Shown here: one piece after another, positions 2,315 through 14,213 of the stretch
Layout: each line of letters begins with the position of its first letter
How positions within the stretch are numbered: position 1 is the stretch's first letter
NCBI GenBank assembly: GCA_031316255.1
Contig: JALDQW010000001.1
Coordinates: forward strand, 1-64,000
Source: Nitrosomonas sp.
GTDB lineage: Bacteria; Pseudomonadota; Gammaproteobacteria; Burkholderiales; Nitrosomonadaceae
DNA: 64,000 nt
Direction: 5' to 3'
Notes under the pieces: generated by a model
Database searches by the model: none
What the model saw: only the letters and a program-made list of their open reading frames with translations
Told to the model about the DNA's origin: nothing
Program-made: the position numbers and the translations under genes

Positions 2315-3595
2315 CACTGCTGTCCCGTTAACTTTTGCTTTCAAAACAATGTTGGTTGATTATCTAGTGGGTAACGATCAATAGGAAGGTCGCCTCGCAG
2401 CAGTGCCATGAGATCGCGCTTTTCAAAAAGATTGAGCTGCAATAATCGTAGTATTTGTTGCATACTGATATGAATTTTTGACTGAAATTTGATAAACGCG
2501 ATCAGTAAATAGACACATAATGCGATCCAGATTTGAGTCATAACTGCATTTTTGCTGGTTCCTACAAACGATTTGATTTTAAGGTTCTGTTTGATCCATT
2601 TGAAGAAAAGCTCCACCTGCCAGCTCGCCTTATAGACATCGGCAATGGTTTTGGCCGCCAGTTTGAAATGATTCGTCAGAAAAATATATTGCTTGCCGGT
2701 ATCGATATCTCGATAGACGATGCGGCGTAATGGAATCGGACATTTTTTCACGGCATTATTAGCGGTAAACATTATCGTCTGATCGCTGATTATTCCTTTG
2801 TTTTTCTGTACAGCTTGGTACTCAATCACTTTATAGCAGGCATTTGATTTAAGGCGGGTAACAAAATATATGCCTTTGTTTGTCAACTGGTTAAACCAAG
2901 CGTAATCCATGTAGCCTCTATCCATTGCCATGATACTGCCAGTTGGAAATGCCAGTGTGCGTCCAACTTCAATATCAGTTGCTTTTCCATCCGTGTTTAC
3001 GGCAAATTCAGGCAAATAACCGCTGTGATTGAGGCCGACATGCAATTTGATAGCCCCTTTCGTAGTTCGAAAATCAGTCCAAGGAAAAGCAGACAGGCAC
3101 AGATCAATCGTAGAGGCATCCAACGAGTAAAGGGCGTTCTTGAAACAGAACTTGTGGCCAGGCGTCAGATGTTGACAATGGCGCAACAACTTTCCAAACA
3201 ACGCTTCATGCAAGCTATAGGGCTTGTTTTCATTCATGCGCGCAAGGTTCGAGCGTGTTAGCTTTGCGCTGCCAAGATGATACAGACGGTGTGCCTGCGC
3301 ATTCACGTTCCCTACGATATCACGCAAACTGATACGGCACAGATAACTGTGCCATCACCATGACTACAAACTGGGACCAACGGGTAGCGGTACGAAAAGA
3401 TCGCCCCGCATGATGGTGGTTTGCCAAAGACTCAAATTCATGTCTCGAAACAAATTTTAGAATTTGGGAGAGGATTGTATTACAATGTGCCACGGCCTGA
3501 TTCTCCAATCTTATTCAATAAGTTATCGTAAATCCTATTGTAACAATTTTGGCCGAATCGGGCCTCCTCATTTGTCAGTTAGCGGGACAGCAGTG
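2315..3595 (-). mobile_element. IS4-family insertion sequence with frameshifted transposase
   Basis: Terminal inverted repeats of 19 bp with one mismatch are visible: CACTGCTGTCCCGTTAACT at 2315-2333, and the complement of 3577-3595. They are flanked by 9-bp direct repeats with one mismatch (ATCGGAACT 2306-2314; ATCAGAACT 3596-3604), consistent with a target duplication. Length is 1281 bp with one transposase gene. The mutated repeat and the frameshift suggest an old, probably immobile insertion. Confidence 0.85.
2341..3508 (-). pseudogene. IS4-family DDE transposase, one frameshift
   Basis: The N-terminal part (3320-3508, with TRWSQFVVMVMAQLS) and the main part (2341-3327, starting in SLRDIVGN) belong to one reading frame separated by a 1-nt shift near 3333-3345. 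The main part carries the DDE core, with SLDASTIDL, AMDRGYMDY and the IS4 signature Y-x2-W-x2-E-x6-K (YKASWQVELFFKWIK). The full protein would be about 385 residues, normal for the family. With the shift it is unlikely to make active transposase unless recoded. Confidence 0.8.
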
Positions 3596-9998: not shown

Positions 9999-10241
9999 TT
10001 AATGATGTCGACATTCGCACCCAGGTGCGTGTGCATGACTTGTCTGATCAGTTTTTGGTTGCAACGAGCGTACTGCCAGATCACGGCCACGGGTCATGTT
10101 GCCATGCATCGCAGGAGCAGAAAGAATCACTTTTTCTGCCGCGCTCCCACATGCCGGACAATACGGTTTGGGTGCATTGATCGAATGGCGCGCTTCAAAT
10201 TTGCGTTTGCATTGTATACACAAGTAGTCATAAGTTGGCAT
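9999..10241 (-). CDS. FmdB-family zinc-ribbon protein
   Basis: An 80-residue protein starting MPTYDYLCIQCKRKFEARHS, the hallmark of FmdB putative regulatory proteins. Two CxxC knuckles (CIQC and CPAC) form a zinc ribbon in the first 35 residues. The C-terminal tail is His/Cys-rich (HAHAPGCECRHH) and may bind metal. FmdB-type ribbons often accompany amidase and small-molecule hydrolase genes. Here the protein follows the carbonic-anhydrase-like gene by 102 bp, with a strong hairpin between them. Confidence 0.8.
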   Translation of the reverse strand: MPTYDYLCIQCKRKFEARHSINAPKPYCPACGSAAEKVILSAPAMHGNMTRGRDLAVRSLQPKTDQTSHAHAPGCECRHH

Positions 10242-10343: not shown

Positions 10344-10997
10344 TTAGCTCCAACGAGGTGGCTGTTGGCCTTTGACACCGAATTGCGCTGAAGTAACATC
10401 AGTCCTGGCCCGTTTATCGGCATCTCGCGTTGGGGCTCTCAACCGGCGTGTCTCAACTTCCCAGACCCAACCGCTAATGATTACATCCTTGGGAATGAGA
10501 GGATGATTTTTAAATGCTTCGATGGTTTTCATGCAGGTTTCATCCACGTCGTCCATCATTCCGATCCACTTGGCAAAAGCTCCCTTCTCCAGCTTCTGCT
10601 CTGGCAGCGTAGGATCCAATACGATATTATCCGGATCGATTCCTTTATCTCGGAAAACCTTTTCCAGATCAGTCGCATTTGCAGATAACATGCCGCATTG
10701 AGTATGCTGCACAATGACAATTTCCTTAGTGCCAAAAAAATTACAAGTTAGCATCGCAGAGCGAATTGCATCGTCGGTGACAATTCCTCCGGCATTACGG
10801 AAGCAGTGCGCATCGCCATGACCTGCTGGGGTATCGACATGGATACCGAGCGCTTCATCTATTGGTAAGCGTTCGTCCATGCACGCAAGCACCCACAACT
10901 TCCGGTTATTATGCCCGGCCGGCCCATGACGACGACGTTGTGCCCAGTGATCATATGCAGCTAAGCGTGTATCCAATTCTTCTTTGAGAGTTTTCAA
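10344..10997 (-). CDS. Beta-carbonic-anhydrase-like hydrolase (CA/COS-hydrolase clade)
   Basis: A 217-residue protein with the beta-CA zinc site: Cys39 in ACMDERL, with the Asp41/Arg43 dyad, and His98 and Cys101 in QHTQCGM. The motif FRNAGGIVTDDAIRS (about 66-80) is the family core. The CMDxR spelling places it in the divergent clade that contains mycobacterial Rv1284-type enzymes and the carbonyl sulfide and CS2 hydrolases. It could therefore hydrate CO2 or hydrolyse COS or CS2; sequence alone does not decide. An IS256-type element starts 86 bp upstream and separates it from the sigma-54 promoter at 12519-12534. An fmdB-like gene follows. Confidence 0.75.
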   Translation of the reverse strand: MKTLKEELDTRLAAYDHWAQRRRHGPAGHNNRKLWVLACMDERLPIDEALGIHVDTPAGHGDAHCFRNAGGIVTDDAIRSAMLTCNFFGTKEIVIVQHTQCGMLSANATDLEKVFRDKGIDPDNIVLDPTLPEQKLEKGAFAKWIGMMDDVDETCMKTIEAFKNHPLIPKDVIISGWVWEVETRRLRAPTRDADKRARTDVTSAQFGVKGQQPPRWS

Positions 10998-11082
10998 TTT
11001 TGAGTCTCCTCATTAATAGATTGCAATTTAAATCTTCCTAAAACGATCTAGTTTCACAGTAGAACCTAGAGGGATTTCTAAG

Positions 11083-12461
11083 GAGCTATAGTCAAATCTG
11101 GTGTATGGAGAATCAAGTGGCCTGCTGTTTTTGATCCCCATTTTGTTTAACGCCGTCAACGAATTTTGCACCTTTGATGACATCCGCTAACAATTTATAA
11201 CCCCTCAGCCGGAACCATTTTTTCTGTGCTACTTCCATCAGTTTGAACGCCATCGTTAAAGTTGTCGTCCGACTTCCACAGTTTTTAGTTTTGGCTGTTC
11301 TCAGCCGAACCGTTGCAAAGACAGACTCGACCGGGTTGGTTGTTCTAATGTGTTGCCAGTTTTCTGCAGGGTAATCATAGAAGGCCAGCATGGAGTCTTT
11401 ATCCTTTTCCAGGCACTGCATCGCTTTTGGATATTTCGGGCTGAAACACTCAATACAGTTATCAAATGCTGCATACGCTTTTTCCCGTGTTTCTGCCTGC
11501 CAGATATTGTGCAGTGCTTCCTTAACCTTGGGTTGCATGGCCTTGGGCAGTTTTTCCAGCACATTGGCAGTTTTATGTACCCAGCAACGCTGCTGATCGG
11601 TATCTGGCCAACATTTGGCAACAGCTTTCCAGAATCCCAGTGCACCGTCACCGACAGCCAGTCTGGGCGCTTTTTCAAGGCCACGCTGTTTCAGGTCCAT
11701 TAATACTTCCGTCCAACTCGCTTCAGACTCACGATAACCATCAGACAATGCCAGCAATTCTTTACGCCCCGTTTCATCAGAGCCGATAATCACCAGAAGA
11801 CATAACCGGTCATCCATTCTTACCGTGCTGTAGATGCCATCAGCCCAGACATAAACATACCGCTTGCCACTCAGGTCGCGGCGCGTCCAGTTTTGATAAT
11901 CCTGTTCCCAGTTCTGCTTTAAACGACCAATCGTCGCAGACGACATTCCCGGCGCATCCGGCCCCAGCAGGTGTTTTAGCGTCTCAGTAAAATCTCCCGT
12001 AGAAACACCCCTCAGATATAACCAGGGTAAGAATTCTTCAATGTTTTTAGTACGCTTCAAATAGGGAGGTATCAGACTGCTGTTAAATTTGATGCCGGTG
12101 CCGGAACGGTCTCGTACTTTCGGTACCTTGATTTCAATATCTCCAAGCCCCGTTTGAATGGTACGTTCAGGCAGATAGCCATTTCTGACAACCGCCTTTT
12201 GGCCCTCATCGGTTTTTATACCGCCATATCTCTCAACAAAACTTGCCACCTCTGATTCTATCGCCGCCGCCAACATTTTACGTGCGCCTTCCCGGAGTAC
12301 TTCATGTAACGGATCATTTTGTTCTGGTTTATTCAGCTTAAAAACATTATTATCTGTCATGCGGTGTTTTCCTCTTTTTATTGGTTGATCTGCCGAGATC
12401 TATACCAACAGGTTACACCGCTTTCTCCTCCCTTGTCATACACCAGAAATAATCATAGCTC
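11083..12461 (-). mobile_element. IS256-family insertion sequence, complete
   Basis: Imperfect 25-bp terminal inverted repeats start GAGCTAT and end TCTGGTGTATG on the inside (11083-11107 and the complement of 12437-12461). A perfect 9-bp target duplication, ATTTCTAAG, flanks them (11074-11082 and 12462-12470). The 1379-bp element has one intact transposase gene, so it is probably a recent, active insertion. Confidence 0.93.
11113..12360 (-). CDS. IS256-family (Mutator-like) DDE transposase
   Basis: A 415-residue transposase of normal family length. DDE residues lie in YVWADGIYS (about residue 175), LAVGDGALGFWKA (about 240) and the Glu of RTTNPVESVFATVRLR (about 345). The alpha-helical insertion with DQQRCWVHKTANVLEKLPK (C/H signature) is characteristic of IS256. 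The frame is intact and the start lies 77 bp inside the right end, as expected for cut-and-copy IS256 elements. Confidence 0.93.
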   Translation of the reverse strand: MTDNNVFKLNKPEQNDPLHEVLREGARKMLAAAIESEVASFVERYGGIKTDEGQKAVVRNGYLPERTIQTGLGDIEIKVPKVRDRSGTGIKFNSSLIPPYLKRTKNIEEFLPWLYLRGVSTGDFTETLKHLLGPDAPGMSSATIGRLKQNWEQDYQNWTRRDLSGKRYVYVWADGIYSTVRMDDRLCLLVIIGSDETGRKELLALSDGYRESEASWTEVLMDLKQRGLEKAPRLAVGDGALGFWKAVAKCWPDTDQQRCWVHKTANVLEKLPKAMQPKVKEALHNIWQAETREKAYAAFDNCIECFSPKYPKAMQCLEKDKDSMLAFYDYPAENWQHIRTTNPVESVFATVRLRTAKTKNCGSRTTTLTMAFKLMEVAQKKWFRLRGYKLLADVIKGAKFVDGVKQNGDQKQQAT

Positions 12462-12518
12462 ATTTCTAAGAGTATTTAACCCATGCATCTAGTTATTTTC
12501 AGATGCTATAAAATTACA

Positions 12519-12534
12519 TGCAAATAACGTGCCA
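12519..12534 (-). promoter_or_regulatory. Sigma-54 promoter, perfect -24/-12 consensus
   Basis: The minus strand reads TGGCAC-GTTAT-TTGCA, an exact match to TGGCAC-N5-TTGCA. It points left, towards the carbonic-anhydrase-like gene, and lies between that gene and the divergent sigma-54 activator at 12651. The IS256-type element is inserted about 50 bp downstream of the -12 element, so the promoter now reads into the IS. Confidence 0.8.
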
Positions 12535-12617
12535 CTGAGCTAAAAATAATATTTATTCTTAATTACAATAAGTTAGATTTTATTTGTTGCTCTATTAGTG
12601 AACTTATGCTTCAATTA

Positions 12618-12634
12618 GTGAAGATGAACTTCAC
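12618..12634. promoter_or_regulatory. Candidate enhancer site for the sigma-54 activator
   Basis: GTGAAG-ATGAA-CTTCAC is a perfect 6-bp inverted repeat about 95 bp upstream of the sigma-54 promoter, the usual place for enhancer binding. A related half-site (TTAGTGAACTT) lies just before it. It is also within 35 bp of the activator's own start, so autoregulation is possible. Confidence 0.5.
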
Positions 12635-12650
12635 GCATGATCCATAATCT

Positions 12651-14213
12651 ATGAACAACAATCCTCTTTCTGAGTTAACGCCGATATTTTTTTTGCAAAC
12701 TTTCATTCTTGAACTGATACATGCCAGCGAACAACAGGGACAAAAGCATTGTGAACAGTTGATTGAGCATATAGCCCAAACGGTAGGATGCTTTTTTGAA
12801 GAAACTTATCGAGAAAATACTCATAAAAGTGAACAGTTCGATAATGAGAGCTATACCGAACTGATACTTGGTATCAAAAACAATATCGGTGGGAAATTCT
12901 CACTAGTCTCCAGTGATCAGGACTGTATTACAGTTACCAACTCTCGCTGTCCTTTTGGCGAACAAGTCACCAAGTTTCCTGAATTATGCAGGATGACTTC
13001 CAGCGTATTTGGAGGCATCGCAGCCAGAAACTTTGGTTATGCCAAAGTTGATATCAAAAAAAGTATTGCTCGCCAGGATGGCAGATGTGATGTATGTATT
13101 TACACCAATCCACAGGCAGCAAAAGGGCATGCTGGCATGGAATATACTGATACAACACCAGTCAAGGAAATTAACGATGCAAATGAATTACAGTGCCGAA
13201 TTGAAACTAGTATGCAAAGGCTTTGGCAGAAACAAAATAGGCTAATATCAGAAAAACATCAGCCTCCTGCAATTATCGCAAAATCACCAATGATGCAGGA
13301 AATACTGCAATCAATCGAGGTTATTGCCCCTACCTTGGCAACGGTTCTGATTCAAGGCCAAACAGGTGTAGGTAAAGAGCTGATAGCACGTGCCATTCAT
13401 GCGATGAGCAATCGTTCCCATAAACCATTCATCGCCATTAATTGCGGCGCAATTCCAGAAAGCCTGATTGAAAGTACCTTGTTTGGACATGAAAAAGGCG
13501 CTTTCACAGGAGCCATAGAAGTACACCAAGGCTATTTTGAACGATCTGAAGGCGGTACTTTGTTTTTGGATGAAGTCGATTCGCTGTCGCCAGCAGCACA
13601 AACCAGATTGCTTCGTGTGATCCAGGAAGCAGAGTTGGAGAGGGTTGGCGGCAAGCAAACTTTGGCGGTTGATGTGAGAATCATCTCAGCAACAAATCAG
13701 AATTTGGAAAGTCTTGTTAAGCAGGATATGTTCCGCAATGACCTATACTATCGCATCAATGTAGTGCGTTTAAGTATTCCTCCTTTGGTCGAGCGATCAG
13801 AAGACTTGCCTTATCTTGTGCAATTGATCATTCAGCGATTGAACAAGCGATATAACAAACAGGTTAAATCAGTAAGCCGTGAAGTTATGCAGAAAATCCG
13901 CGCCTATCATTGGCCAGGCAATGTCCGTGAGTTGGAAAACATTCTAGAGCGTAGCATCTTGTTTGTTAGTGGAAAAGAAATGACTGAACTGGATATAGAG
14001 CTTCGAACTGAAACAAAAAGCATTGGTGAATGGAAAGACGAAAAAGAACATGCTCTTACTAAAATTGAAAAATCATTTCTAGAATCAGCTCTGAAGCAAC
14101 ATCACGGAAATATAAAAAGAGTTTCCGAAAATATGGGAATTTCATCACGTGCAATTTACACCAAACTAAAAAAACATAATATTAACTTGGCAGATTTTCG
14201 TCCTCTTGATTGA
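12651..14213 (+). CDS. Sigma-54-dependent transcriptional activator with metanogen_OD-like sensor
   Basis: A 520-residue three-domain bacterial enhancer-binding protein. Residues about 1-165 form a sensor with SRCPFGEQV and LCRMTSSVFGGIAARNFGYA, close to the Cys-containing metanogen_OD/V4R-related domain, then a linker. The AAA+ domain has Walker A GQTGVGKE (about 236), the sigma-54 contact loop GAFTGA (about 283), Walker B GTLFLDEVDS and the arginine-finger region. A Fis-type helix-turn-helix (HGNIKRVSENMGISSRAIYT) closes the protein. A perfect sigma-54 promoter lies divergently 117 bp upstream, so it most likely controlled the carbonic-anhydrase operon. The effector is unknown. Confidence 0.9.
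   Translation: MNNNPLSELTPIFFLQTFILELIHASEQQGQKHCEQLIEHIAQTVGCFFEETYRENTHKSEQFDNESYTELILGIKNNIGGKFSLVSSDQDCITVTNSRCPFGEQVTKFPELCRMTSSVFGGIAARNFGYAKVDIKKSIARQDGRCDVCIYTNPQAAKGHAGMEYTDTTPVKEINDANELQCRIETSMQRLWQKQNRLISEKHQPPAIIAKSPMMQEILQSIEVIAPTLATVLIQGQTGVGKELIARAIHAMSNRSHKPFIAINCGAIPESLIESTLFGHEKGAFTGAIEVHQGYFERSEGGTLFLDEVDSLSPAAQTRLLRVIQEAELERVGGKQTLAVDVRIISATNQNLESLVKQDMFRNDLYYRINVVRLSIPPLVERSEDLPYLVQLIIQRLNKRYNKQVKSVSREVMQKIRAYHWPGNVRELENILERSILFVSGKEMTELDIELRTETKSIGEWKDEKEHALTKIEKSFLESALKQHHGNIKRVSENMGISSRAIYTKLKKHNINLADFRPLD

What the first reader, a model, noticed from the sequence alone, without database searches (positions are those of the whole stretch)
12471..12650. A perfect sigma-54 promoter has been cut off from its gene by an IS256 insertion
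TGGCAC-N5-TTGCA (minus, 12534-12519) lies between a divergent sigma-54 activator and the carbonic-anhydrase-like gene, with an enhancer-like palindrome GTGAAG-N5-CTTCAC about 95 bp upstream. The IS256 element (9-bp target duplication ATTTCTAAG) landed about 50 bp downstream of the -12 box. Before insertion, promoter and gene were about 130 bp apart. The natural control of the carbonic anhydrase/fmdB genes is therefore probably lost or now drives the transposase region.
Basis: partly seen in the sequence, partly recalled or inferred. Interest (0 to 1): 0.75.

Follow-up and report, generated by a model that had tools for sequence, protein, structure and literature searches.

The report
Transposon splits CS2-hydrolase gene from promoter
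In an ammonia-oxidising Nitrosomonas, a recently arrived IS256-type transposon sits between a conserved sigma-54 promoter and the gene it is expected to control, which is probably not an ordinary carbonic anhydrase but an enzyme that breaks down carbon disulfide, a known inhibitor of ammonia oxidation.

Summary
TGGCAC-N5-TTGCA (12534-12519, minus), a palindrome pair, a divergent sigma-54 activator and an IS256-family element with a 9-bp target duplication are all present. In 85 genomes of the genus searched, 26 carry the full gene; the 25 other than the window's all keep the promoter (one copy examined each) and none has the IS there. Over a wider, capped set, 62 of 75 distinct upstream regions carry the site within 2 mismatches; the 6 actinobacterial ones do not. 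The gene is misnamed: it is about 55% identical to a solved carbon disulfide (CS2) hydrolase and has its Phe-Phe motif. So this was a sigma-54-type CS2-hydrolase/fmdB unit, also seen in methanotrophs and sulfur oxidisers. 'Cut off' is stronger than the evidence: the transposase points the same way and no intrinsic terminator was found, so read-through is possible and unmeasured. The insertion is ordinary; the conserved unit in ammonia oxidisers is the interesting part.

The parts
12519..12534 (-). sigma-54 -24/-12 promoter TGGCACGTTATTTGCA; expected start near 12508 (inferred)
   Evidence: TGGC and TTGC invariant in 24 of 24 distinct intergenic regions of relatives
12618..12634 (.). distal activator-site palindrome GTGAAG-N5-CTTCAC (role inferred)
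   Evidence: only exact copy in genome; partly invariant
12598..12614 (.). second, weaker palindrome GTGAAC-N5-CTTCAA, centre 20 bp from the first (role inferred)
   Evidence: sequence; aligned with TTGAAGCATAGCTTCAC (minus strand) in several relatives
12651..14213 (+). divergent sigma-54 activator: MetOD1 domain, AAA+ sigma-54 interaction domain with GAFTGA, Fis-type HTH
11083..12461 (-). IS256-family insertion sequence, 1379 bp, imperfect ends (20 of 25 match)
11113..12360 (-). IS256-family transposase, 415 aa, same direction as promoter and target gene
   Evidence: NF033543, 323 bits against cut-off 150
11074..11082 (.). target duplication ATTTCTAAG, gene side
12462..12470 (.). target duplication ATTTCTAAG, promoter side
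10344..10997 (-). [quoted passage not shown]
   Evidence: 3ten/3teo E 3.2e-53; 98 of 179 aligned residues identical, FF motif; start region conserved
9999..10241 (-). FmdB-family zinc-ribbon gene, usual partner of the hydrolase gene
   Evidence: PF09723, TIGR02605; a homologue in 70 of 80 named loci
12361..12461 (-). IS leader before the transposase ATG; predicted hairpin closing at the start codon
   Evidence: prediction

Best explanation
Before the insertion, a MetOD1-type sigma-54 activator bound a pair of palindromes and, on an unknown signal (I suggest CS2 or a related sulfur compound), turned on a -24/-12 promoter that transcribed a CS2-hydrolase gene and fmdB. An IS256-family element then landed in the untranslated leader, 47 bp after the expected start site (38 bp plus the 9-bp target copy), pointing the same way. 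The promoter now transcribes the IS first. The hydrolase gene, its ribosome site and the 85 bp before it (76 bp plus the target copy) stay, but get only whatever transcript runs through the 1.4-kb element, most likely a reduced amount because the transposase is probably poorly translated from such a transcript. Shown: the parts, the empty site, conservation of promoter and palindromes, recency. Inferred: sigma-54 use, inducer, CS2 as substrate, lower expression.
For: Empty site in L026, 2 mismatches over 3200 bp. Promoter in 25 of 25 other genus genomes with the full gene (one copy examined each), transposase within the fetched flanks of none of them. Site within 2 mismatches in 62 of 75 distinct upstream regions; shuffles of the same regions average 4.3-6.6 on the same penalised scale, and for 55 of the 62 none of 40 shuffles did as well (7 of 62: one of 40); 6 of 6 actinobacterial regions fail that cut. 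Palindromes partly invariant. rpoN present, 226 bits for PF04552. GAFTGA in the activator and in 33 of 36 homologues. Best solved relative is CS2 hydrolase, E 3.2e-53, against 1.4e-16 for COS hydrolase. One full-length IS copy in the genome, 5 fragments; G081, whose gene lies at L026's coordinates, has only a 207-bp, 86% piece. IS leader hairpin, z -3.5.
Against: No transcript data. No intrinsic terminator between promoter and gene, and the IS-gene junction folds no better than shuffles (z 0.96), so the gene may still be expressed and regulated. Another clade keeps a 134-139 bp insertion in the same leader. The sister is a draft MAG (240 contigs), so lack of the IS elsewhere in it is weak evidence. 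CS2 as substrate rests on homology; FmdB's role is unknown.
Confidence: 0.62

Rival explanations
1. Regulation survives: the sigma-54 transcript runs through the co-directional IS into the hydrolase gene and fmdB, so the insertion is nearly neutral and makes the transposase region inducible by the same signal.
For: Same strand for promoter, transposase and gene; 0 terminator-like sites in 10900-12750, shuffles mean 1.6; no marked structure at the IS-gene junction (z 0.96); hydrolase, fmdB and ribosome site intact; another clade keeps an insertion in this leader.
Against: The predicted hairpin at the transposase start could leave a long untranslated RNA, which invites Rho termination (general knowledge, not tested).
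Confidence: 0.28
2. The IS end supplies a new outward promoter, so the hydrolase gene is now constitutive.
For: A TTGACT hexamer lies at the gene-side IS end (sequence); outward promoters are known in the IS256 family (recalled).
Against: No minus-strand sigma-70-like pair with at least 9 of 12 matches in 10900-12750; the one found is on the plus strand, shuffles mean 3.1.
Confidence: 0.1
3. The conserved site is not a sigma-54 promoter but some other conserved leader element.
For: No start site has been mapped.
Against: TGGC and TTGC are invariant at fixed spacing in 24 of 24 regions; the site stays with the hydrolase gene where the activator homologue sits elsewhere; 6 of 6 actinobacterial relatives lack it at 2 mismatches.
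Confidence: 0.04

Closest known systems
CS2 hydrolase of Acidianus A1-3 (organism recalled for PDB 3ten/3teo and named in a passage of PMC8209446) and of Acidithiobacillus thiooxidans (Smeulders 2013: title in reference lists; paper not held)
   Same: 98 of 179 aligned residues identical to 3ten, Zn-ligand pattern and Phe-Phe motif
   Different: Nitrifier version, with fmdB and a divergent sigma-54 activator; activity and ring assembly untested
COS hydrolase of Thiobacillus thioparus THI115 (PDB 3vqj)
   Same: Same beta-carbonic-anhydrase family; a 3vqj-like gene (E 1.3e-116) lies beside the CS2-hydrolase gene in Thiobacillus L084
   Different: Much weaker match to the window gene (E 1.4e-16)
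IS256-family insertion sequences
   Same: Transposase family, 9-bp target duplication, inverted ends
   Different: Nothing unusual; one full-length copy in this genome
Sigma-54 promoters with one-component activators (NorR/DmpR type, recalled)
   Same: -24/-12 box, upstream palindromes, GAFTGA AAA+ domain, Fis-type HTH
   Different: Sensor is a MetOD1 domain with three nearly invariant cysteines (C100 35/36, C113 35/36, C146 36/36); the target is a CS2-hydrolase unit

Membership tests
CS2 hydrolase (beta-carbonic-anhydrase family) | Closest solved relative is CS2 hydrolase, not COS hydrolase or carbonic anhydrase | tested here: met
   E 3.2e-53; next 8.7e-24 (putative carbonic anhydrase 3las)
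CS2 hydrolase (beta-carbonic-anhydrase family) | Phe-Phe motif (called characteristic in a passage of PMC6382920) | tested here: met
   Window gene has NFFGT, aligned to NFFGT in 3ten. Named loci: NFFG in 73 of 80, HFFG or QFFG in 6, L083 not readable in that script
CS2 hydrolase (beta-carbonic-anhydrase family) | Zn ligands: CxDxR then HxxC (recalled as ligands) | tested here: met
   pattern in 79 of 80 (L083 unread); window protein
CS2 hydrolase (beta-carbonic-anhydrase family) | Hydrolyses CS2, with negligible CO2 hydration (passage of PMC8209446) | not testable with these tools
   needs enzyme assay
Sigma-54-dependent promoter | GG and GC dinucleotides at TGGCAC-N5-TTGCW spacing | tested here: met
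Sigma-54-dependent promoter | rpoN in the genome and a GAFTGA activator at the locus | tested here: met
Sigma-54-dependent promoter | rpoN-dependent start site | not testable with these tools
   needs 5' RACE or RNA-seq
IS256 family | Family transposase over the curated cut-off | tested here: met
   NF033543 323 bits, cut-off 150
IS256 family | 8-9 bp target duplication and terminal inverted repeats (family traits recalled) | tested here: met
   ATTTCTAAG twice; ends match 20 of 25
IS256 family | Inserted: empty site in a close relative | tested here: met
   L026

The most novel reading that the evidence does not exclude
Some ammonia oxidisers and methanotrophs carry a dedicated, sigma-54-inducible detoxification unit (MetOD1 activator, CS2 hydrolase, FmdB, in some species followed by a flavoprotein and a TauE exporter) that protects the copper monooxygenase from carbon disulfide; this strain has just had it uncoupled by an IS, giving a natural pair with the HKST-UBA151 population to test it. 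Against it: 59 of 85 genomes of the genus searched lack the full gene, so it is an accessory at best.
Probability: 0.35. Interest if true: 0.65.

Novelty: new member of a known kind. Interest (0 to 1): 0.45.

Why it matters
CS2 inhibits ammonia monooxygenase (title of Hyman, Kim and Arp 1990, seen in a reference list). A conserved, probably inducible gene for breaking it down would bear on nitrification inhibitors, on which nitrifiers tolerate sulfurous habitats, and on CS2/COS fluxes. The IS-carrying genome and its empty-site sister give a natural comparison.

Tried and rejected
Hybrid outward promoter at the IS end: no minus-strand sigma-70-like pair found. Intrinsic terminator between promoter and gene: none found. 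Chance origin of the promoter: rejected by conservation. Promoter facing another gene in the empty-site relative: rejected. Carbonic anhydrase proper or COS hydrolase: both score far below CS2 hydrolase. IS leader hairpin: of 5 related IS copies with a usable left end, 4 keep the 7-bp stem (one, L124, through a G-U change) and one (L125) interrupts it (L110, L111 and L121 were left out by the filter, L107 is the same sequence as L108), so it stays a prediction. More targets of the activator: 6 further palindromes, each with 1 mismatch, against 6 matches of the reversed control. Literature, open library only: 'carbon disulfide' + 'Nitrosomonas' + 'hydrolase' 0 papers; 'carbon disulfide' + 'sigma-54' + 'hydrolase' 0; 'CS2 hydrolase' 23, 20 listed, none titled on nitrifiers; 'carbon disulfide hydrolase' + 'Thiobacillus' 2; COS-hydrolase terms 77, 20 listed; 'carbon disulfide' with 'ammonia monooxygenase' 12 and with 'nitrification inhibitor' 10. 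Only titles and abstract starts were seen, plus term passages of PMC13098186, PMC6382920, PMC8209446, PMC6091914, PMC12756903 and PMC13056722. One search listed 6 of 820 and decided nothing. No tRNA was found in the window.

Full report
What is there. On the minus strand TGGCACGTTATTTGCA lies at 12534-12519; the 3.74-Mb genome has three copies of the pattern and none of its reversed control. The plus-strand gene 12651-14213 is a sigma-54 activator with a MetOD1 domain, an AAA+ sigma-54 interaction domain and a Fis-type helix-turn-helix; it has the GAFTGA loop, as do 33 of 36 homologues examined. The genome has rpoN. Between promoter and activator lie two palindromes, 12598-12614 and 12618-12634, 20 bp apart centre to centre; the second is the only exact GTGAAG-N5-CTTCAC in the genome.

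The insertion. A 1379-bp element (11083-12461) with imperfect inverted ends (20 of the first 25 positions match) and an IS256-family transposase is bracketed by ATTTCTAAG at 11074-11082 and 12462-12470. It is the only full-length copy in the genome; the other five matches are fragments. L026, from Nitrosomonas MAG HKST-UBA151, matches the joined flanks over 3200 bp with two mismatches and no gap, an empty site with a single target copy; over the longer flanks it matches 6743 bp at 99.9% and 5761 bp at 99.98%. The insertion is therefore recent.

Is the promoter real? The activator-to-hydrolase region was aligned for 24 distinct sequences from 38 loci (the window itself not included): TGGC and TTGC are invariant and so are parts of both palindromes, while most of the rest drifts. 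Seven identical upstream regions were dropped, leaving 75. Of these, 62 have a site with a score of 2 or less (6 with 0, 35 with 1, 21 with 2); shuffles of the same regions average 4.3-6.6 per locus. In 55 of the 62 none of 40 shuffles did as well; in 7 (L057, L060, L068, L075, L080, L097, L100) one did. L080's site, at -290, is poorly placed. The 13 without are L054, L063, L081, L083, L088, L089, L090, L092, L093, L094, L095, L098 and L103. They include two nitrifier MAGs (L054, L063), and four with a 3-mismatch site between -87 and -116 (L088, L089, L090, L103). They also include all six actinobacterial regions tested (L081, L092-L095, L098; L092 and L095 have 3-mismatch matches that 10-12% of shuffles equal).

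In the genus. One search covered 85 genomes; 26 carry the full gene. The 25 other than the window's own all have the site upstream and none has the transposase in the fetched flanks; one copy per genome was examined, and the second copies of G075 and G090 were not. Where an activator homologue (45-51% identity) sits downstream (L046 Sulfuricella, L084 Thiobacillus) or upstream on the same strand (L062, L064, L071), the promoter stays with the hydrolase gene.

What the gene is. Pfam places it in the carbonic anhydrase family (34.7 bits, cut-off 25.7). Among solved structures the best match is CS2 hydrolase 3ten (E 3.2e-53), then a putative carbonic anhydrase (8.7e-24); COS hydrolase 3vqj has 1.4e-16. 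In the printed alignment 98 of 179 aligned positions are identical. The Phe-Phe motif, called characteristic of CS2 hydrolase in a passage of PMC6382920, is present. An FmdB homologue is found in 70 of 80 named loci. In 42 representative loci of those 80, a member of the activator cluster is near in 36 (not in L080, L081, L092, L093, L098, L100), a flavoprotein in 6 and an exporter-like protein in 4. Pfam was run on three of these: two flavoproteins (Pyr_redox_2) and one exporter (TauE). I read the flavoprotein as sulfide:quinone-oxidoreductase-like from memory; Pfam does not say so. In Thiobacillus L084 a COS-hydrolase gene (3vqj, E 1.3e-116) lies nearby. A CS2 to COS to CO2 route with sulfide handling fits. 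The window's genome keeps a 74%-identical flavoprotein elsewhere, at 3332048-3333259.

Who has it. Named hits include Nitrosomonas, Nitrosospira and Nitrosovibrio, the methanotrophs Methylobacter and Methylomonas, sulfur oxidisers (Thiobacillus, Sulfuricella, Sulfuriferula, Thiohalobacter, Candidatus Thiodiazotropha), and Mycobacterium and Pseudonocardia (the metabolic labels are recalled). CS2 inhibits ammonia monooxygenase (title of Hyman, Kim and Arp 1990 in the reference list of PMC13056722; not read). I infer a protective role in nitrifiers and methanotrophs; a sulfur- or energy-supply role is the alternative, more likely in sulfur oxidisers. The patchy spread in the genus (26 of 85) speaks for an accessory trait.

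What the IS does. Expected start 12508; IS border 12461. Promoter, transposase and hydrolase gene share a direction. No intrinsic terminator and no minus-strand sigma-70-like promoter was found in 10900-12750. The first part of the chimeric transcript folds better than its shuffles (z -3.5), with a stem that ends at the transposase ATG; 4 of 5 related IS copies keep that stem. The IS-gene junction shows no such structure (z 0.96). If the hairpin keeps the transposase untranslated, Rho would probably cut the read-through (general knowledge). I put reduced expression first and surviving read-through second. A separate lineage (L034, L039, L040) has a 134-139 bp element between two TTAA copies in the same leader, so this leader has been hit at least twice and the insertion has been kept.

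Novelty. An IS landing in a leader is ordinary. A sigma-54-type CS2-hydrolase unit in nitrifiers was not met in the open library held (mostly titles and abstract starts); the key bacterial CS2-hydrolase paper could not be read, so it may be known.

Noticed in passing
L034, L039, L040: leader between promoter and hydrolase gene: A 134-139 bp element between two TTAA copies (terminal repeats match at 19 of 22 positions in L034 and L039, 11 of 22 in L040), in the stretch corresponding to about 5 bp from the IS256 target copy: an independent insertion in the same leader.
   Followed up: partly
window 12361-12461, minus strand: Predicted hairpin closing at the transposase ATG, kept in 4 of 5 related IS copies; may block transposase translation from outside transcripts.
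   Followed up: partly
window 12651-13240, activator N-terminus: Three cysteines (C100, C113, C146) are kept in 35, 35 and 36 of 36 homologues: a possible metal or thiol sensor site in the MetOD1 domain.
   Followed up: no
L003:1501-1516 (own genome 3678540-3678555): Another perfect sigma-54 site, 42 bp before a 237-aa ORF with a signal-peptide-like start (read by eye).
   Followed up: no
L084:4531-5253: COS-hydrolase gene (3vqj-like) near the CS2-hydrolase gene in Thiobacillus; a shorter homologue in L085 and another beta-carbonic-anhydrase-type gene in Methylobacter L056.
   Followed up: partly
G075 and G090: Two genomes of the genus carry two full copies of the hydrolase gene (94% and 91% identity to the window's); G075 also has a third, partial match.
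   Followed up: no
window 2341-3327, minus strand: A 328-aa ORF that looks like a transposase of another family (by eye; no family search run).
   Followed up: no
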